Shown in pieces: positions 6,160 to 64,000 of a DNA stretch of 64,000 nt. How positions within the stretch are numbered: the stretch's first letter is position 1; each line of letters begins with the position of its first letter. The notes below the pieces were generated by a model. The model made no database searches. It was not told the origin of the DNA and saw only the letters and a program-made list of their open reading frames with translations. The stretch lies in contig MEFY01000002.1 in NCBI GenBank assembly GCA_001725325.1, positions 809,559-873,558 on the forward strand, written 5' to 3'. Source of the DNA: Leifsonia sp. SCN 70-46. GTDB lineage: Bacteria; Actinomycetota; Actinomycetes; Actinomycetales; Microbacteriaceae. The translations under genes were made by a program, and so were the position numbers.

Positions 6160-6820
6160 GCCGCGCATCCGCGTCGTCGTCGTCGACGACCAGCCGCTCT
6201 TCGCCTCCGGCCTCGGCATGCTCATCGACGCCCAGCCCGACATGGAGTGCGTCGGCACCGCGGGCGACGGCGCCCGGGCGCTCGAGGTCGTCGCCGAGCT
6301 GCGCCCCGACGTCGTGCTCATGGACCTGAGGATGCCCGGGGTCAACGGCATCGAGGCGACCAAGCTGCTGCTGGCCCGCGGCCGGGCCGACGAGCCGCCG
6401 CGCGTCATCGTGCTCACGACCCTCCGGCAGGACGGCGTGGTCGTGCAGGCGCTCGCCGCCGGCGCGAGCGCGTTCCTCACGAAGGATGCGACACCCGACC
6501 AGGTGCTCGGCACGATCCGTGCGACGCAGGAGGGCGCCGTGGTCCCCGACCTCGCCGCGACCCTCGCGCTCGTGGCCGACCTGCGCGGCGCATCCTCTGG
6601 CCCCGCCCGCGGAGCGGCCCTCGAGCCCCTGAGCCCGCGCGAGCGCGAGGTGTTCCTCCTCGTCGCCCGCGGGCTCACGAACGCGGAGATCGCCGAGGCG
6701 GAGTATGTGAGCGAGGCGACCGTGAAGTCGCACATCGCCGCGATCCTGCGCAAGCTCGGGCTCCGCAGCCGCGTGCAGGTCGTCGTGTTCGCACACCAGA
6801 ACGGGCTCGTGAGCGTGTGA
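6152..6820 (+). CDS. LuxR/NarL-family response regulator
   Basis: A 222-residue transcription factor that pairs with the overlapping histidine kinase. The receiver domain (about 5-125) has the acidic pair VVVDDQP, phospho-acceptor Asp58 in VVLMDLRMPG, a Thr in VIVLTT and Lys in FLTKDA. The C-terminal GerE/LuxR helix-turn-helix (about 155-218) has LSPREREVFLLVARGLTNAEIA and TVKSHIAAILRKLGLRSR. Both domains are complete. The eight-base overlap with the kinase stop shows translational coupling. Target promoters cannot be inferred here. The purM promoter immediately downstream is separate, since purM has its own -10 box. Confidence 0.94.
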   Translation: MPEPRIRVVVVDDQPLFASGLGMLIDAQPDMECVGTAGDGARALEVVAELRPDVVLMDLRMPGVNGIEATKLLLARGRADEPPRVIVLTTLRQDGVVVQALAAGASAFLTKDATPDQVLGTIRATQEGAVVPDLAATLALVADLRGASSGPARGAALEPLSPREREVFLLVARGLTNAEIAEAEYVSEATVKSHIAAILRKLGLRSRVQVVVFAHQNGLVSV

Positions 6821-6836
6821 CGTTAAGCTTGACCGC

Positions 6837-7937
6837 GTGACCGAAGACACCTCCGCCAGCTATCGCGCCGCGGGGGTCGACACCGCCGCAGGCGATCTCG
6901 CCGTCGAGCTCATGAAGGCCGCCGTCGCCAAGACGCACGGGCCGCAGGTGTTCGGCGGGGTCGGCGGGTTCGCCGGGCTCTTCGACGTGAGCTTCCTCAA
7001 GACCTTCGACAGGCCGCTGCTCGCCACCTCCACCGACGGCGTGGGCACGAAGGTCGCGATCGCGCAGGCGCTCGACAAGCACGACACGATCGGCCAGGAC
7101 CTCGTGGGCATGGTCGTCGACGACATCGTCGTGGTCGGCGCGCGCCCGCTGCTCATGACCGACTACATCGCGTGCGGCAAGGTCGTGCCCGCGCGCATCG
7201 CCGACATCGTCGCGGGCATCGCGCGCGCGTGCTCGGAGACCGGCACGGCGCTCGTGGGCGGCGAGACGGCCGAGCACCCGGGGCTCCTCGGGCCCGACGA
7301 CTACGACGTCGCGGGCGCCGCGGTCGGCGCCGTCGAGGCGGGCGACCTGCTGGGTGCGCACCTCGTGCGCGAGGGCGACGTGGTCGTCGCCATGGAGTCG
7401 TCGGGCGTGCACAGCAACGGGTTCTCGCTCGTGCGGCACATCCTCGCGACGCGGGGTGTCTCGTACACCGACACGTCGGCCGAGCTCGGGGGAGTCGTGG
7501 GCGAGGCCCTGCTCGAGCCCACGCGCCTGTACACGGCCCCGCTGCTCGAGCTGCTGCCCGCGGGCGGCGTGCACGCCATAAGCCACATCACGGGCGGCGG
7601 CATCGCGGCGAACCTCGCGCGCGTGCTGCCCAAGGGCTCGTACGTGGAGCTGGAGCGGTCGACGTGGTCGCCGCCCGCCGTGTTCCGCGTGCTGTCGGAG
7701 TGGGCGGGGTCCACGCTCGAGAGCGCCGAGGGCACCTGGAACCTGGGCGTGGGCATGATCGCCGTCGTCGCGCCGGATGCGGCGGACCGCATCATCGCGT
7801 CGCTCGTGCGCGCGGGCATCCCATCGTGGGAGGCGGGCCGTGTGGTCGTCGGGCAGCTGCCCGAGGCCCACTTCGAGCAGGGCGCCAAGGGTGTCGACGG
7901 AGGCGCCGTGCGCCTCACGGGGTCGTACGCGGGCTAG
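6837..7937 (+). CDS. purM: phosphoribosylformylglycinamidine cyclo-ligase PurM
   Basis: AIR synthetase closes the imidazole ring of FGAM using ATP, the fifth step of purine synthesis. The 366-residue protein has the family landmarks YRAAGVD near the start, STDGVGTKVAIA near residue 63, QDLVGMVVDDIVVVGARPL, LVGGETAEHPG and HITGGGIAANLARVLP. Length is slightly above the usual 345-355. The GTG start at 6837 follows TAAGCT (6824-6829) by seven bases, so a leaderless mRNA is likely and no Shine-Dalgarno is seen. The TAG stop overlaps the opposite-strand DUF3073 stop through a shared CTAG (7934-7937). Confidence 0.96.
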   Translation: MTEDTSASYRAAGVDTAAGDLAVELMKAAVAKTHGPQVFGGVGGFAGLFDVSFLKTFDRPLLATSTDGVGTKVAIAQALDKHDTIGQDLVGMVVDDIVVVGARPLLMTDYIACGKVVPARIADIVAGIARACSETGTALVGGETAEHPGLLGPDDYDVAGAAVGAVEAGDLLGAHLVREGDVVVAMESSGVHSNGFSLVRHILATRGVSYTDTSAELGGVVGEALLEPTRLYTAPLLELLPAGGVHAISHITGGGIAANLARVLPKGSYVELERSTWSPPAVFRVLSEWAGSTLESAEGTWNLGVGMIAVVAPDAADRIIASLVRAGIPSWEAGRVVVGQLPEAHFEQGAKGVDGGAVRLTGSYAG

Positions 7938-57926: not shown

Positions 57927-58220
57927 CTAGTCGGCGGTCGGCTCGGGCTCGATGCGGAGTCCGCCCGGAGTGTTCGCCGAGTCGATGAGCTGGTCGAGCC
58001 ACGCGCGGTTGATCTCCTGGCGGCCCTGGTCGAAACGGAACTGGAGCGTCGCGTTGGTGCCCACCCAGATCGTGGTGCGCCCGCCCTTGTCACGGTCGAG
58101 GGAGATGGCGAAGCTCTCGTTGCGGCGCAGCTTGGCGAGGGTGACGACCTCGACGTGGGCGAGGGTGCGGTCGTCGAGCTCGAAGGTCTCCGGGGGAGTC
58201 CCGTACAGCAGCTGGCCCAT
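57927..58220 (-). CDS. DUF7882 family protein
   Basis: A 97-residue protein, MGQLLYGTPPETFELDDRTL, then AHVEVVTLAKLRRNESFAISLD, RTTIWVGTNATLQFRFDQG and DSANTPGGLRIEPEP. It aligns along its whole length with the protein at 61652, so the window holds two paralogues. In Microbacteriaceae these proteins are often mislabelled as an ATP-dependent DNA ligase; they lack any ligase motif and function is unknown. The pattern GR(T/S)xIW followed by a predicted beta-strand is the most conserved part. It is convergent with the beta-repeat protein across the B repeats. Confidence 0.87.
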   Translation of the reverse strand: MGQLLYGTPPETFELDDRTLAHVEVVTLAKLRRNESFAISLDRDKGGRTTIWVGTNATLQFRFDQGRQEINRAWLDQLIDSANTPGGLRIEPEPTAD

Positions 58221-58257: not shown

Positions 58258-58521
58258 ATGGCGATTGTAAACAGGCTGACGGTCGACGGCCGCGACTACT
58301 TCCTGCCCGAGCCCGTCACGGAGCTCAAGGGCAAGATCCTCGAGGCGATCAAGGCGGGCGGCGGCTACGTGAACATCCCGCCGCTGCGGTCGGGCCCCGG
58401 CATCGACATCCTGTTCTCCCCGGGCATGCCCGTCGTGTGGACGCAGATCGACGTGGGCGGCGACGGCGACGCGGTGGCCGCCGTGGGCGAGCCCGCGACC
58501 GACGACTTCGACGGGCTCTAG
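58258..58521 (+). CDS. small hypothetical protein
   Basis: An 87-residue protein, AIVNRLTVDGRDYFLPEPVTEL, followed by KGKILEAIKAGGGYVNIPPLRSGPGIDILFSPGMPVVWTQID and an acidic end. The fold is unknown to me. The ATG at 58258 is chosen; an in-frame GTG two codons earlier is also possible. It is divergent from the DUF7882 gene (37 bases between) and its stop shares CTAG (58518-58521) with the EAL gene on the other strand. Coding is supported by these tight neighbours and by length. Confidence 0.78.
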   Translation: MAIVNRLTVDGRDYFLPEPVTELKGKILEAIKAGGGYVNIPPLRSGPGIDILFSPGMPVVWTQIDVGGDGDAVAAVGEPATDDFDGL

Positions 58522-59279
58522 GCCGTCAGGAGGCTCTCGAGCTCCGCGAGCGGCATGGGCATCGCGAGCAGGAAGCCCTGGGCGCGCTCGCAGCCGAGCT
58601 CGCGCACGAGCGCGAGCTGCTCGTCGGTCTCGATGCCCTCGGCCACGACGCGCAGGCCCCGCCAGTGGGCGAGCTCGACGATCGCGGTCATGAGCGCGAG
58701 GGACTGCACCGAGCCGTCTTGCACGAGGCTGCGGTCGATCTTGAGCTCGGTCGCGGGGATGCGCTCGAGCTGCTGCAGCGACGAGTAGCCGATGCCGTAG
58801 TCGTCGATCGAGATGCCGAGCCCGCGCTGGCGCAGCTCGTCGAGCCGGATCGCGATCGACGGGGTGTCGAGGATGGGGTAGCTCTCGGTGATCTCGATCG
58901 TGATCGCATTGGCGGGCAGGCCCACGCGGCCGAGGTCGCGGTCGAGCAGGTCGAAGAACGCGAGGGTCGTGAGCTGGTTCGCCGAGACGTTGACGGAGAC
59001 CTCGAGGGCGATGCCGCGCTCGTTCCAGCTCGTGACCGCCGCGAGCACCTGCTCGATCATGTGGCGGCCGAGGGTGTGGATGAGAGCCTGGTCCTCCGCG
59101 ATGGGGATGAAGACGCCGGGCGCGATGAGGCCGAGCTCGGGGTGGTTCCACCGCGCGAGGGCCTCAGCCGCGACGATCCTGCCCGTGGCGAGGTCGAACT
59201 GGGGCTGGTAGTGCGCGACGATCTCCCCGCGCTCGCACGCGCCGTGGAGGTCGTGGACGAGGCGCTCCTCACCGACCAA
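58518..59279 (-). CDS. stand-alone EAL-domain c-di-GMP phosphodiesterase
   Basis: A 253-residue protein consisting of one EAL domain. It begins close to the domain start (GEIVAHYQPQFDLATGRIVAAEALARWNHPE, where the signature reads EAL). It keeps SVNVSANQL (metal Asn), IEITES (Glu), ISIDDYGIGYSSLQQL (Asp-Asp loop), LKIDRSLV (Lys) and VAEGIETDEQL (Glu). All catalytic residues are present, so it should break c-di-GMP to pGpG. The start must be TTG at 59279 or later, since an in-frame TGA lies two codons before it. No sensor domain is present in this reading. It lies divergent to the RsbQ-like/GGDEF pair and may counteract it. Confidence 0.9.
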   Translation of the reverse strand: MVGEERLVHDLHGACERGEIVAHYQPQFDLATGRIVAAEALARWNHPELGLIAPGVFIPIAEDQALIHTLGRHMIEQVLAAVTSWNERGIALEVSVNVSANQLTTLAFFDLLDRDLGRVGLPANAITIEITESYPILDTPSIAIRLDELRQRGLGISIDDYGIGYSSLQQLERIPATELKIDRSLVQDGSVQSLALMTAIVELAHWRGLRVVAEGIETDEQLALVRELGCERAQGFLLAMPMPLAELESLLTA

Positions 59280-59352
59280 GAGGTATCACCGCCCCGTTCT
59301 CGTGTTGCATGTACCTAGTACACGCGTTTGGCAACCCCGAAATCTACCGTGC

Positions 59353-59380
59353 TTGATTTTGGGCCGATCACACTTATACT
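59353..59380 (+). promoter_or_regulatory. near-consensus promoter of the rsbQ-like gene
   Basis: -35 TTGATT (59353-59358) and -10 TATACT (59375-59380) with a 16-bp spacer, followed by an untranslated region of about 50 bases to the GTG at 59436. The AT-richness contrasts with surrounding GC-rich DNA. TGTACCTAGTACA, a palindrome with 5-bp arms, lies upstream near 59310. Confidence 0.7.
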
Positions 59381-59435
59381 CCGGTCAGGCTTCGAACCCC
59401 CCTCGACGCCCCGCTCTTCTGGATTGGTAGAACCC

Positions 59436-60245
59436 GTGACGACGACACCCGCCGCCACCGTGCTGACACGCAACAACGTGCACGTGTCCGGGAAGCCGGA
59501 CGGCCGGGCGATCATGTTCTCGCACGGGTTCGGCTGCGCGCAGGAGGTGTGGAGCCGGGTCGCCCCGCACTTCGAGGCCGACCACCGGGTGATCCTCTTC
59601 GACCACGTCGGCTCGGGCGGGTCCGACCTCTCGGCGTACGACCGCGGCAAGTACGACTCGCTGCACGGCGCCGCCGACGACATCCTCGAGATCCTCGAGG
59701 CGCTCGACGTGACCGACGTCGTCTTCGTGGGCCACTCGGTGAGCGCCATGATGGGCGTGCTCGCCTCGGTGCACGATCCCTCGCGGTTCGGCAAGCTCAT
59801 CCTCGTCGGCCCGTCGCCGCGGTACATCGACCAGGGCGACTACACGGGCGGGTTCAGCGCCGCCGACATCGACGGCCTCCTCAACTCGCTCGACGCCAAC
59901 TACCTCGCGTGGTCGGCGACGATGGCTCCCGTCATCACGGGCAACCCCGACCGGCCGGAGGTGGGCGAGGAGCTCACGGGCCTGTTCTGCGCGACCGATC
60001 CCGTGATCGCCGGGCACTTCGCGCGCGTGACCTTCCTCTCCGACAACCGCGCCGACCTCGAGGCCGTCACGGTGCCGACGGTCGTGCTGCAGTGCAGCGA
60101 GGATGTCATCGCCCCCGACGTCGTGGGCGACTACGTGCACGAGCACATCCCCGGCAGCACCCTCGTGCGGCTGTCGGCCAAGGGCCACGTGCCGAGCCTC
60201 TCCGACCCCGACGAGCTCGTCGCGGTCATCCGGGCGCAGCTGTGA
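59436..60245 (+). CDS. RsbQ-like alpha/beta hydrolase
   Basis: A 269-residue hydrolase of the RsbQ/KAI2 (DAD2) group. The catalytic triad is Ser101 in FVGHSVSAMMG, Asp223 in LQCSEDVIAP and His251 in AKGHVPSLSDP; the SMHGFG-type oxyanion loop reads FSHGFGCAQEVW, and DRPEVGEELTGLFCATDPVIAGHFAR matches RsbQ closely. In Bacillus, RsbQ works with the PAS-containing phosphatase RsbP to activate SigB under energy stress, while plant KAI2/D14 relatives are hormone receptors. Here its stop overlaps the GTG of a PAS-GAF-GGDEF gene, so it probably supplies the signal to that cyclase. The GTG at 59436 gives the typical length. Confidence 0.92.
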   Translation: MTTTPAATVLTRNNVHVSGKPDGRAIMFSHGFGCAQEVWSRVAPHFEADHRVILFDHVGSGGSDLSAYDRGKYDSLHGAADDILEILEALDVTDVVFVGHSVSAMMGVLASVHDPSRFGKLILVGPSPRYIDQGDYTGGFSAADIDGLLNSLDANYLAWSATMAPVITGNPDRPEVGEELTGLFCATDPVIAGHFARVTFLSDNRADLEAVTVPTVVLQCSEDVIAPDVVGDYVHEHIPGSTLVRLSAKGHVPSLSDPDELVAVIRAQL

Positions 60246-61609
60246 CCGAGGAGCTCTTCCAGCACGCCCCCTGCGGCCTCGTGCGCACGGTCGACGGCGT
60301 CATCCTCGACGCCAACGACACGATCCTCGCGTGGCTGGGCCGCGACCGCGAGTCGTTCGTCGGCACGCTCCTGCAGCAGCACCTGGATGCGGGCAGCCGC
60401 CTGTTCTTCGAGACCCGGCACACGCCCGTGCTGCTGCTCTCGGGCACGGTCCGCGACGCGTCCCTCACGATGCTGCGCGCGGACGGCTCCCCCCTTCCGG
60501 TGCTCCTCAACTCCACGGTGCACGACGGAGCCGTCCACACGGCGATCTTCGACGCGGGCGCGCGCGCCGACTACGAGCGCGAGCTCGTGGAGGCCCGCCG
60601 CGCCGCCGAGGCCTCGGAGGTGCGCGTGCGCGTGCTGCAGGCGTCGTCGAGCGCGTTCGTGAGCAGCTCGACCGAGGAGCAGGTGTGCGTCGCGCTCTTC
60701 GCCGCCGCGACGGAGGCGTTCGGAGCGACCGCCACGGGGGTCTTCCTGCTCGACGACGCGGGCGAGTACAACCTCGTCGCGGGGCAGCATCCGCTCGACG
60801 GCGCGCTGCCGCGCAGCGCCCCGCGCGCGTCCGACGCCGCGCTGCTCGAGGAGAAGACCATGACGGTGTCGGTGCGCGACGCCGACGGCCCCTACTCGGC
60901 CCTCGCCCTAGCGCTGCGCGCCCGCCGTCTGGACTCGGTCACGATCATCCCCCTGCTGCGCAACGGCGTCTCGATCGGCGTGCTCGCGTGCTTCTTCGCG
61001 CGCGAGCGGGCCTTCGACGCGGAGTACGCCGACCTGCAGGCGGCGTTGTCGCGCCAGGCCGCCCTCGCGATCTCGCGCGTGCGCCTGCAGAAGGAGCTCG
61101 AGCGCCTCGCGCTGCACGACCAGCTCACGGGGCTCGACAACCGCAACCTCATCCTCGAGAACGTGCACACCGCCGTGACGCGCGCGCGCCTCACGAGCCG
61201 GCCCGTGTCCGTCGTGTTCCTCGACCTCGACGGGTTCAAGCGCGTCAACGACGAGCTCGGCCACCAGGCGGGCGACGCGGTGCTGCAGGAGGCCGCCGCG
61301 CGGATCCGCTCCGAGGTGCGCCACGCCGACTCCGTGGGGCGCTACGGCGGGGACGAGTTCGTCGCGATCTGCGAGGACGCGGACCGGGATGCCGCTGCCG
61401 CTGTGGCCGACCGCATCCGCGAGGCCGTGGCCCGGCCCTACGCCGGCCTGCCCGACGGCTACGGCGTGACGGCGAGCGTGGGCGTCGCCATCTACACCCC
61501 CTCCGACGCCCCGGAGCCCAGCGACGACGAGCTCATCGGGCTCGCCGACGACGCGATGTACATCGCCAAGAGCGCGGGCAAGGACCGCGTGACGTTCCTG
61601 CACCACTAG
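60242..61609 (+). CDS. PAS-GAF-GGDEF diguanylate cyclase
   Basis: A 455-residue protein. The N-terminal PAS domain (about 1-115, FQHAPCGLVRTVDGVILDANDTILAWLGRDRESFVG) is typical of RsbP-like partners. A GAF domain (about 135-285) follows, with TGVFLLDDAGEYNLVAG and VTIIPLLRNGVSIGVLACF. The C-terminal GGDEF domain (about 295-455) is active by motif: GGDEF at 369-373, LVFLDLDGFK-type metal site VVFLDLDGFKRVND, and an inhibitory I-site RHAD at 360-363. The coupling with the hydrolase (GTGA overlap) suggests that it makes c-di-GMP in response to the hydrolase's ligand or product. Confidence 0.93.
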   Translation: MTEELFQHAPCGLVRTVDGVILDANDTILAWLGRDRESFVGTLLQQHLDAGSRLFFETRHTPVLLLSGTVRDASLTMLRADGSPLPVLLNSTVHDGAVHTAIFDAGARADYERELVEARRAAEASEVRVRVLQASSSAFVSSSTEEQVCVALFAAATEAFGATATGVFLLDDAGEYNLVAGQHPLDGALPRSAPRASDAALLEEKTMTVSVRDADGPYSALALALRARRLDSVTIIPLLRNGVSIGVLACFFARERAFDAEYADLQAALSRQAALAISRVRLQKELERLALHDQLTGLDNRNLILENVHTAVTRARLTSRPVSVVFLDLDGFKRVNDELGHQAGDAVLQEAAARIRSEVRHADSVGRYGGDEFVAICEDADRDAAAAVADRIREAVARPYAGLPDGYGVTASVGVAIYTPSDAPEPSDDELIGLADDAMYIAKSAGKDRVTFLHH

Positions 61610-61651: not shown

Positions 61652-61969
61652 ATGGGAACGCTGACCTACGACTCCAAGCTCACGGCGACCTTCGACGACC
61701 GCGTCCTCGCCCACCTCCAGATCGTGATCTGGGCGAAGATCCGCCGCGGCGAGCCGTTCTCGTTCACCTGGAGCGAGCCGTCGCGCAACGGCTACGGGCG
61801 AACCTCGATCTGGATCAGCCCCAACATCTCGCTCGCCTTCGAGTACTTCGGCGGCAAGACCCCGCTCATCAACAAGAACTGGGTCAACCTGCTCAGCAAG
61901 TCCGCGAACTCCCCGGGCGGACTGCAGCTGCTGCCCGAGCCCGAGGATGTGCCGGGCCCGGCTAGCTGA
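61652..61969 (+). CDS. DUF7882 family protein, second copy
   Basis: A 105-residue paralogue of the gene at 57927. It reads MGTLTYDSKLTATFDDRVLAHLQIV, with RTSIWISPNISLAFEYFGG and SANSPGGLQLLPEP at the end. The two paralogues keep the same order of blocks, with identity highest at the start and in the SANxPGGL motif. A ribosome site AAGAAGGGA precedes the ATG. It follows the diguanylate cyclase gene by 42 bases on the same strand and may share its transcript. The TGA stop is five bases inside the convergent gene's end. Function unknown. Confidence 0.87.
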   Translation: MGTLTYDSKLTATFDDRVLAHLQIVIWAKIRRGEPFSFTWSEPSRNGYGRTSIWISPNISLAFEYFGGKTPLINKNWVNLLSKSANSPGGLQLLPEPEDVPGPAS

Positions 61970-62571: not shown

Positions 62572-64000
62572 TCAGCGCGAGACGCGGTTCCGCCCGCCGG
62601 CCTTCGCCCGGTACATCGCCGCGTCGGCCCGTTCCACGAGCTCGGCGGTGGACCCGGGTCCGCCGCCCACGAGGCCGCACGACGCCGTGACGACGACGCT
62701 GCCGTCGCGCAGCGCGATGGGCTCGCCCAGCGCCGCGACCACCCGGTCGGCGACGCGCTCCGCGGCGGCCGCGGTCATGTTCTCGCACACGATGACGAAC
62801 TCGTCGCCCCCGAAGCGCGCGACCCTGTCCTGGCTGCGCACCTGCGTGATGAGCCGCTGCGCGACCTCGAGCAGCACGGCGTCGCCGGCCTCGTGGCCGT
62901 AGGAGTCGTTGATGCGCTTGAAGTCGTCGAGGTCGACGAAGAGCAGCGAGATCTCCGAGCCGCGCTCCCGGATGCGCTCGAGCTCCTCCTGCAGGAAACG
63001 GCGGTTCGGCAGGCTCGTGAGCGGGTCGCGCAGCGCGAGCTTCGCGAGCCGGGCCTCGTTGCGGCGCGAGAGGGCGCTCTCGAGGCCCTGGGCGAAGTCG
63101 CCCGCCGCGGTCGCCGCGTCCTCCCACGGCAGCGAGGTCGCCGTGACGCTCTCGGTCCACGACGAGAACGACAGGCGCGGCGAGAGCGGGGTCGGGCGGT
63201 TGTCGGGGCCCTGGTCGCCCAGCCAGTCCACCGACTGCAGCACCTCCCGCCGGAAGAACGCCAGGTAGTCGCCGGCCTCGCCGATCGGCACGACGAGCAC
63301 GCCCGCGAAATCCGGCAGGAGGGGCGCGAGGTCGGGATGCTCGGTAGCGATCGACGCCGTCTCGAGGGCCCCGCGCCGCGCGAGCTCGTCGAGCACGTCG
63401 GCCTCGGGGGCGCCGGGCGTGCGGCGGAGGTCGCCGTCGAGCTGGATCGCCGCCGCATCCGCGGTCACGAGGTCGAGCACCGTCGGGGCGCCCTCGAGCA
63501 GCGTCGCCGAGAGCTCGTCGGAGCCCACCATGCGCGTGAGCAGCGTCGCCCGCAGCTCCCGCCGCCGCACCTCGACCTCGAGCGAGTGCAGGTCGCGCTG
63601 GGCGCCGAGCTGCAGCGCCACCTGGTTGCCGAGCACCTCGAGGCTGCGGCGCAGCAGGAACGGCAGCCGTCGCTCCTCGCGGTGCGCGCACGTGATCATG
63701 CCGATGAGCACACCGCGGTAGATGAGCGAGAACGAGAGCGTGGATGCCTGGCCCATGTTGCGCATGAACTGGCGGTGGATGGGCGAGACGCTGCGCAGCT
63801 CCGCGACGCTCAGGTCGAGCTGTGCGGGTTCGATGTCGGCCAGCGTCAGGAGCGCGACCGGCTCCTTCGTGCTCGAGACGATGGCGCGCGAGAGCTTGGA
63901 GAGGTAGAGCTGGCGGGCTTGGGCGGGGATGTCCGTCGCGGGGAAGTGCAGGCCGAGGTACGGCTCCATGTCGTCCGCGCGGTCCTCGGCGACCACCTCG
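62572..64000 (-). CDS. bacteriophytochrome-GGDEF protein (partial, N-terminus off the right edge)
   Basis: A red/far-red photoreceptor joined to a diguanylate cyclase; 475 residues are visible. The fragment opens inside the chromophore GAF domain: EVVAEDRADDMEPYLGLHFPATDIPAQARQLY carries the phytochrome PASDIP signature as PATDIP, and LRSVSPIHRQFMRNMG gives the conserved His. The PHY domain follows, with its tongue motif as SPRLSFSSW preceded by SVDWLGDQG in place of the usual WGG. The C-terminal GGDEF domain has RFGGDEF (62797-62811 code GGDEF) and an I-site RSQD. The biliverdin-binding Cys would lie in the missing PAS part. No heme oxygenase gene is in view. Confidence 0.92.
   Translation of the reverse strand, partial: EVVAEDRADDMEPYLGLHFPATDIPAQARQLYLSKLSRAIVSSTKEPVALLTLADIEPAQLDLSVAELRSVSPIHRQFMRNMGQASTLSFSLIYRGVLIGMITCAHREERRLPFLLRRSLEVLGNQVALQLGAQRDLHSLEVEVRRRELRATLLTRMVGSDELSATLLEGAPTVLDLVTADAAAIQLDGDLRRTPGAPEADVLDELARRGALETASIATEHPDLAPLLPDFAGVLVVPIGEAGDYLAFFRREVLQSVDWLGDQGPDNRPTPLSPRLSFSSWTESVTATSLPWEDAATAAGDFAQGLESALSRRNEARLAKLALRDPLTSLPNRRFLQEELERIRERGSEISLLFVDLDDFKRINDSYGHEAGDAVLLEVAQRLITQVRSQDRVARFGGDEFVIVCENMTAAAAERVADRVVAALGEPIALRDGSVVVTASCGLVGGGPGSTAELVERADAAMYRAKAGGRNRVSR

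What the first reader, a model, noticed from the sequence alone, without database searches (positions are those of the whole stretch)
59436..61609. RsbQ-like hydrolase coupled to a diguanylate cyclase instead of a SigB phosphatase
The hydrolase has the intact Ser-Asp-His triad and the full RsbQ layout (S101, D223, H251), and its stop overlaps the GTG of a PAS-GAF-GGDEF gene. In Bacillus the PAS domain of RsbP receives the RsbQ signal. Here the output domain is GGDEF, so an energy- or small-molecule cue could directly set c-di-GMP. RsbQ relatives in plants (KAI2/D14) are butenolide receptors, so the natural ligand is of special interest.
Basis: partly seen in the sequence, partly recalled or inferred. 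Interest (0 to 1): 0.8.

Follow-up and report, generated by a model that had tools for sequence, protein, structure and literature searches.

The report
RsbQ-type sensor driving a c-di-GMP synthase
A bacterial sensor protein related to plant karrikin and strigolactone receptors is encoded by a gene that overlaps the gene of a c-di-GMP-making enzyme; this kind of pair was already described in 2011, but comparing many relatives narrows down where the two proteins probably touch.

Summary
In detail: a 269-aa RsbQ-type hydrolase (triad S101/D223/H251) overlaps by 4 bases the GTG of a 455-aa PAS-GAF-GGDEF gene. The novelty claim is not: Nadezhdin, Brody and Price (2011, PMC3183031) described RsbQ-PAS modules with phosphatase, kinase or diguanylate-cyclase outputs. 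Here 273 of 289 assessable RsbQ-type loci have PAS directly downstream. In the window's family the output is c-di-GMP related in all 71 classifiable of 73 cases (62 PAS-GAF-GGDEF, 9 PAS-GGDEF-EAL); elsewhere in the class 64 of 68 are phosphatases. The genome has no SpoIIE-phosphatase hit. The 62 PAS-GAF-GGDEF hydrolases form one branch. Hydrolase divergence tracks the PAS domain, most of all the EF-loop/F-alpha stretch that binds RsbQ in B. subtilis; no single residue pair is significant. A same-genome paralogue of the cyclase without a hydrolase is about 12 residues shorter there. An EAL gene lies divergently upstream in 28 of 73 family loci; DUF7882 genes lie nearby in 30. Best reading: the hydrolase docks on PAS and reports an unknown small molecule to the cyclase. 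New member of a known kind; ligand, sign and contact are unproven.

The parts
59436..60245 (+). RsbQ-type alpha/beta hydrolase (269 aa), triad S101-D223-H251
60242..61609 (+). PAS-GAF-GGDEF diguanylate cyclase (455 aa), 4-base overlap with the hydrolase gene
60275..60553 (+). RsbP-type PAS domain (protein residues 12-104); modelled helix 50-67 carries F55, R59 and P62
60557..60664 (+). helix 106-141 joining PAS to GAF (candidate signalling coiled coil)
   Evidence: model; coil propensity not computed
60674..60997 (+). GAF domain (residues 145-252), a possible second input
61019..61114 (+). signalling helix 260-291 joining GAF to GGDEF
61109..61588 (+). GGDEF domain (residues 290-449): GGDEF at 369-373, I-site R360xxD363
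59280..59435 (.). intergenic region shared with the divergent EAL gene; promoter-like TTGATT-16-TATACT at 59353-59380 (+), a consensus match only
58518..59279 (-). stand-alone EAL phosphodiesterase gene, divergent; same arrangement in 28 of 73 family loci
61652..61969 (+). DUF7882 gene directly downstream
57927..58220 (-). second DUF7882 gene, beyond the EAL gene

Best explanation
This is an RsbQ-PAS sensing module with a c-di-GMP output. Shown: an intact RsbQ-type hydrolase gene overlaps the gene of a diguanylate cyclase whose N-terminal domain is an RsbP-type PAS; the GGDEF motif and I-site are intact; the genome gave no SpoIIE-type phosphatase hit, so there is no RsbP-like output. Inferred: the hydrolase binds, and perhaps cleaves, an unknown small molecule, docks on the EF-loop/F-alpha face of the PAS domain, and shifts the cyclase dimer through helix 106-141, the GAF domain (a second input) and helix 260-291. 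Product would feed back at the I-site and be degraded by the divergent EAL enzyme. In B. subtilis RsbQ is an activator, so activation is the likelier sign, but the sign is untested here.
For: RsbQ is the best solved relative and the triad is intact; the triad is nearly invariant in relatives (Ser in 73 of 74 family and 152 of 153 other rows). PAS directly downstream in 273 of 292 loci; of these 273, 146 overlap by exactly 4 bases and 272 start between -30 and +60 bases of the hydrolase stop. RsbP numbering, checked on locus L346 whose hydrolase is 88% identical to RsbQ, maps onto the window PAS with L48, F55, P62 and P86 kept. Over 62 PAS-GAF-GGDEF operons, hydrolase distances track PAS best (r 0.74; helix 106-143 0.55, GAF 0.56, signalling helix 0.59, GGDEF 0.38; partial r for PAS 0.44); in 200 half-taxon draws PAS beat linker, GAF and GGDEF each time and the signalling helix in 98%; along the protein the best 35-column window is residues 41-75 (r 0.70), above the gene-proximal 1-35 (0.58). 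Of the 50 strongest hydrolase-PAS co-change pairs, 25 lie in PAS 47-62 against 7.1 (sd 2.5) in a Poisson null, 0 of 1000 draws as high. The paralogue without hydrolase (L385:4857-6239; 34% identity over 454 columns) has gaps opposite residues 47-54 and 60-63. For RsbP, F55A lost RsbQ binding in two-hybrid and pull-down, Y59A in two-hybrid (PMC3183031, text parts 1-4 of 7 read). No SpoIIE hit in the genome, 5 of 14 control genomes positive.
Against: No single hydrolase-PAS pair stands out among 27,713 (best p 1.5e-4, weaker than the null's median best of 4.7e-5; 7 pairs under 1e-3 against 15.4 in the null); in the 62-operon set there is no site-level excess of co-change with any domain. PAS residue 59, needed for RsbQ binding in RsbP, is R here instead of H/Y, and residue 72 is D instead of E. 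With 33 columns from each domain PAS and the signalling helix are not separable (0.60 against 0.58). The BLAST alignment of the paralogue still pairs its LLETR with FFETR at 55-59, so only part of the stretch is missing. Purified RsbQ and RsbP did not bind without cell extract (PMC3183031). One family locus (L120) has Cys in place of the catalytic Ser, and one family hydrolase (L139) has no PAS neighbour. The hydrolase is in only 64 of 398 family genomes at E 1e-45.
Confidence: 0.73

Rival explanations
1. Product-delivery version: the hydrolase is an enzyme whose product is the real ligand, handed to or diffusing to the PAS or GAF pocket; PAS or GAF is then the sensor. (Not exclusive of docking.)
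For: Triad conserved in nearly all relatives; the triad is required in B. subtilis, and this is Model 1 of PMC3183031. A GAF domain supplies another pocket.
Against: The EF-loop/F-alpha signal and the shortened paralogue favour a contact role, though docking and delivery can both be true. L120 keeps the pair with Cys at the Ser position.
Confidence: 0.35
2. The hydrolase is an independent metabolic esterase that is merely co-transcribed; the cyclase is controlled by GAF alone.
For: No interaction was measured here, and no residue-level coupling was significant.
Against: The hydrolase stays with this PAS type across cyclase, phosphatase and kinase outputs, its divergence tracks PAS rather than GGDEF, and it is nearest to RsbQ by sequence.
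Confidence: 0.09
3. The hydrolase is a receptor for plant-type butenolides (karrikin/strigolactone class), reporting plant or smoke compounds to c-di-GMP.
For: KAI2/D14 proteins are the next solved relatives after RsbQ and Olei00960.
Against: RsbQ is closer (E 1e-90 against about 1e-59), no pocket or ligand test was made, and hydrolases of this type occur in many bacterial phyla.
Confidence: 0.06

Closest known systems
RsbQ-PAS bipartite sensing module with diguanylate cyclase output (Nadezhdin, Brody and Price 2011, PMC3183031)
   Same: RsbQ homologue directly upstream; RsbP-type PAS at the very N-terminus; GGDEF output; no DIT motif at the end of PAS
   Different: GAF domain between PAS and GGDEF (the word GAF does not occur in that paper's main text; its figures were not seen); R at position 59 and D at 72; an EAL gene stands apart and divergent
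B. subtilis RsbQ-RsbP (SigB energy-stress branch)
   Same: hydrolase at 52% identity, gene order, PAS numbering
   Different: output is GGDEF, not a PPM phosphatase; no SpoIIE hit in this genome
KAI2/D14 karrikin and strigolactone receptors
   Same: alpha/beta hydrolase kinship
   Different: plant partners and ligands; no evidence of a butenolide ligand here
DosP and PadC (nearest whole-chain fold matches)
   Same: sensor domain(s), helical linker and GGDEF in one chain (Foldseek)
   Different: low whole-chain TM (0.31-0.35 by the query's length); heme or bilin sensors (recalled) and no hydrolase partner known to me

Membership tests
RsbQ-type hydrolase | closest relationship to RsbQ by sequence | tested here: met
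   1WOM first of 228 solved sequences matched, E 1.1e-90; 52% identity
RsbQ-type hydrolase | Ser-Asp-His triad | tested here: met
   S101, D223, H251; nearly invariant in relatives
RsbQ-type hydrolase | four-helix cap over the active-site pocket | not tested
   hydrolase not modelled; the feature is from passages of PMC3548789 on KAI2, DAD2 and RsbQ
RsbQ-PAS module (PMC3183031) | RsbQ homologue encoded immediately upstream | tested here: met
   4-base overlap
[quoted passage not shown]
RsbQ-PAS module (PMC3183031) | nine class-distinguishing residues (75% consensus) | tested here: inconclusive
   7 of 9 compatible (C11, V14, L48, R53, F55, F56, P86 for RsbP C10, L13, L48, Q53, F55, C56, P86); R59 for H/Y and D72 for E are not. 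The consensus letters are read from the legend; the figure was not seen
RsbQ-PAS module (PMC3183031) | no DIT motif at the end of PAS | tested here: met
   PAS ends ...AIFDAGARADYE
RsbQ-PAS module (PMC3183031) | predicted coiled coil to the output domain (36 of 45 in the paper) | tested here: inconclusive
   modelled helix 106-141, but it leads to a GAF domain, and coil propensity was not computed
RsbQ-PAS module (PMC3183031) | direct hydrolase-PAS contact | not testable with these tools
   indirect only:
RsbP / SigB phosphatase pathway | PPM (SpoIIE) output domain | tested here: not met
   GGDEF instead; 0 SpoIIE hits in the genome
Diguanylate cyclase | GGDEF active-site motif and RxxD I-site | tested here: met
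   G369-F373, R360-D363
Diguanylate cyclase | c-di-GMP synthesis | not testable with these tools
   needs an assay
KAI2/D14 receptor | butenolide binding or hydrolysis | not testable with these tools
   only kinship shown

The most novel reading that the evidence does not exclude
The locus is a c-di-GMP signalling hub of one actinobacterial family in which an RsbQ-type small-molecule receptor, an opposing EAL enzyme and DUF7882 proteins work together, DUF7882 acting as an adaptor or effector. DUF7882 was founded as the putative cytoplasmic transducer of CryoRhodopsins (PMC12227055); if it belongs to c-di-GMP signalling, the missing next step of CryoRhodopsin signalling could be c-di-GMP. In the window a bacteriophytochrome-GGDEF gene adds a red-light input next door.
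Probability: 0.12. Interest if true: 0.75.

Novelty: new member of a known kind. Interest (0 to 1): 0.42.

Why it matters
PMC3183031 says that no ligand or cofactor had been found for the RsbQ-RsbP pair, and the listings showed me no later answer (listings only). A clade in which the same sensor drives c-di-GMP gives a clean readout (c-di-GMP biosensor, biofilm or motility) outside the SigB network, and a same-genome paralogue without hydrolase and shortened in the contact stretch is a natural control for docking. The clustering of DUF7882 with c-di-GMP enzymes is a lead for a protein family that its founding paper ties to rhodopsins.

Tried and rejected
Salt-bridge idea (PAS R59 with hydrolase D74): both are typical of the family, but within it they vary independently (8 loci with R59 and no D74, 6 with D74 and no R59), so dropped. 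Plain mutual information put H35-P59 first of all inter-protein pairs, but that mostly reflects family against the rest; in the tree-based count on the smaller set it was third, on the larger set second and not significant.

Rows dropped: partial hits G305 and G531 were not fetched; G1245 and G1179 neither. L227 (hydrolase cut short) and rows over 97% identical were left out of the co-change tree (273 rows, window included, to 265).

Full report
What is there. The window carries, on the + strand, a 269-aa alpha/beta hydrolase (59436-60245) and a 455-aa PAS-GAF-GGDEF protein (60242-61609) whose genes overlap by four bases. Among solved structures the hydrolase is closest to RsbQ (1WOM, E 1.1e-90), then Olei00960 (3QVM), then KAI2/D14; it is 52% identical to RsbQ and keeps S101, D223 and H251. 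The second protein has clear GAF and GGDEF domains and a weak PAS match in Pfam. The AlphaFold2 model (mean pLDDT 93, pTM 0.61; 29 sequences) shows a PAS fold at 12-104, a helix 106-141, GAF 145-252, a helix 260-291 and the GGDEF domain; the moderate pTM means that the relative placement of the domains is not to be trusted. GGDEF is at 369-373 and an RxxD I-site at 360-363.

Already known. PMC3183031 (outline, text parts 1-4 of 7, and a word search) reports 45 adjacent RsbQ and RsbP-PAS pairs with phosphatase, histidine kinase or diguanylate cyclase outputs, binding of RsbQ through the PAS domain, loss of binding with F55A (two-hybrid and pull-down) and with Y59A (two-hybrid). PMC12143880 (passages) cites this and models RsbP with RsbQ by AlphaFold2. 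So the kind of system is not new. The word GAF does not occur in the 2011 main text; its figures were not seen. Searches for RsbQ with diguanylate, RsbQ with c-di-GMP, and 'bipartite sensing module' listed 4, 2 and 4 papers; most subscription papers are not in that library.

How widespread. Genomes with a hydrolase hit, the window's own included where it belongs: 7 of 27 in the genus (E 1e-30), 64 of 398 in the family (E 1e-45), 74 of 394 in the class (E 1e-45), 23 of 376 in the phylum (E 1e-40), 48 of 398 in the class of a Paenibacillus locus, called Bacilli here (E 1e-40); a collection scan kept the best 80 of 552 relatives. These sets overlap in part. Neighbours were read in 292 loci: 273 have a PAS domain directly downstream, 19 do not, three of which end within 190 bases. 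Outputs of these 273 plus the window. Window family, 73 PAS genes: 62 PAS-GAF-GGDEF (window included), 9 PAS-GGDEF-EAL, 1 (L095) that loses its frame after GAF, 1 (L088) at a contig end, 0 phosphatases. Rest of the class, 68: 64 phosphatase, 2 GGDEF-EAL, 2 unclear. Rest of the phylum, 14: 9 phosphatase, 2 kinase, 1 GGDEF, 2 unclear. Bacilli, 44: 35 GGDEF, 3 phosphatase, 2 kinase, 4 unclear. Collection scan, 75: 29 phosphatase, 25 kinase, 17 GGDEF (one with EAL), 4 unclear. Labels came from profiles seeded with window domains and with domains of five of the ten proteins checked by Pfam; most rows were not checked by Pfam one by one. On the hydrolase tree (FastTree, 259 rows) the 62 PAS-GAF-GGDEF rows are one side of a branch with support 97*, while the five output classes need 12 changes in all, so outputs changed several times.

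Is the genome wired for SigB? A search with SpoIIE (PF07228) gave no hit, with 5 of 14 control genomes positive. The genome has 3 GGDEF and 2 EAL matches. The third GGDEF protein (L385:4857-6239, by a simple gene caller) is a paralogue of the window cyclase, 34% identical over 454 aligned columns, with GAF and GGDEF domains and an EAL gene 3 bases behind it. The only close RsbQ-type hit of the genome is the window's; the six other hits (E 4e-10 or weaker) lie elsewhere. In the BLAST alignment the paralogue has gaps opposite residues 47-54 and 60-63 of the window PAS, with LLETR set against FFETR at 55-59; with the PAS profile, positions 48-73 are left unaligned and 15 residues stand for 26. 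So about 12 residues are missing from the stretch that holds the RsbQ-binding residues. This is one case, gap placement is uncertain, and whether hydrolase-free relatives in general lack that stretch could not be searched.

Where the two proteins probably touch. RsbP numbering was transferred with locus L346, whose hydrolase is 88% identical to RsbQ and whose PAS shows C10, L13, L48, Q53, F55, C56, Y59, E72 and P86 at the expected places. The window PAS keeps L48, F55, P62 and P86 but has R59 and D72. R59 is found in 65 of 73 family PAS domains and in none of 143 others, where H (120) or Y (17) is usual. In 62 PAS-GAF-GGDEF operons, pairwise distances of the hydrolase agree best with PAS (r 0.74) and least with GGDEF (0.38); partial correlation is 0.44 for PAS, 0.25 for the signalling helix and -0.11 for GGDEF. 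With 33 columns from each domain the gap between PAS and the signalling helix vanishes (0.60 against 0.58). The best 35-column window is residues 41-75 (0.70), not the stretch nearest the hydrolase gene (0.58), so linkage alone does not explain it. A tree-based co-change count over 265 rows found no outstanding pair among 27,713, and fewer pairs under p 1e-3 than the null (7 against 15.4); but 25 of the top 50 lie in PAS 47-62 against 7.1 expected (0 of 1000 null draws). That null is a simple Poisson model, and alignment trouble in the EF loop could feed it. In the 62-operon set no site-level excess was seen. Together this supports, and does not prove, docking on the EF-loop/F-alpha face.

Neighbourhood. 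A stand-alone EAL gene (58518-59279, -) starts 156 bases from the hydrolase start. Of 73 family loci, 28 have an EAL gene divergent within 600 bases, 2 co-directional, 9 fused to the cyclase, 5 elsewhere in the fetched stretch and 29 none; of 74 loci in the rest of the class 4 show EAL at all, two of them as fusions. DUF7882 genes lie on both sides in the window (57927-58220 and 61652-61969), 2 of 6 copies in the genome, and occur in the fetched stretch (up to 8.3 kb) of 30 of 73 family loci, on both sides in 4; at 6 copies per 3.1 Mb about one such locus in 73 would be expected by chance, but copy numbers elsewhere are unknown and related genomes are not independent. Against a general link: the four other DUF7882 copies of this genome (three sites) lie far from every GGDEF and EAL match, and the third GGDEF/EAL site has no DUF7882 near it (positions; sites read, some neighbours). 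DUF7882 was founded in PMC12227055 as putative CryoRhodopsin transducers of Microbacteriaceae; its main text has no occurrence of c-di-GMP or GGDEF (passages). The window's family is probably Microbacteriaceae (inferred from DUF7882; no call named it).

Variants. Of 9 family PAS-GGDEF-EAL proteins 6 have no GGDEF motif; all 9 match the EAL motif pattern, none matched the second, stricter pattern (DDFGxG) that I tried, so their phosphodiesterase activity is open. Two PAS-GAF-GGDEF proteins (L099, L102) have no GGDEF motif. In these the same sensor may drive breakdown or a non-catalytic output.

Verdict. A real, conserved, overlapping RsbQ-PAS-diguanylate cyclase gene pair; a new member of a kind described in 2011, with a GAF insertion and a lineage-typical residue 59. 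Docking is the likeliest mechanism; ligand, sign and contact remain to be tested.

Noticed in passing
62572-64000 (-), continuing beyond the window (L219:6130-8127): Bacteriophytochrome-type protein with PHY and GGDEF domains about 1 kb from the pair; no such neighbour in the fetched stretches of 73 family loci.
   Followed up: partly
57927-58220 (-) and 61652-61969 (+): DUF7882 genes on both sides of the c-di-GMP cluster; DUF7882 was founded as putative CryoRhodopsin transducers, and occurs near this cluster in 30 of 73 family loci; confident monomer model (pLDDT 87.8), no clear PDB fold match.
   Followed up: partly
L385:4857-6239 (+) and 6243-7184 (+): Same-genome paralogue of the cyclase (34% identity) next to an EAL gene, without hydrolase, about 12 residues shorter in the EF-loop/F-alpha stretch of PAS.
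   Followed up: partly
L134, L137, L140, L141, L142, L144, L099, L102: RsbQ-PAS proteins without a GGDEF motif, six of them with an EAL domain: possible switch of output sign.
   Followed up: partly
L120: RsbQ-type hydrolase with Cys at the catalytic Ser position, still followed by PAS-GAF-GGDEF.
   Followed up: no
L139: RsbQ-type hydrolase without a PAS neighbour, in a genome that also has a PAS-GAF-GGDEF pair (L122).
   Followed up: no
59310-59322: Palindrome TGTACCTAGTACA in the shared intergenic region; not found in 73 family upstream stretches.
   Followed up: yes
L243, L248, L250, L373, L375, L378, L379, L380: RsbQ-type hydrolases without a detected downstream PAS; partners not examined.
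   Followed up: no
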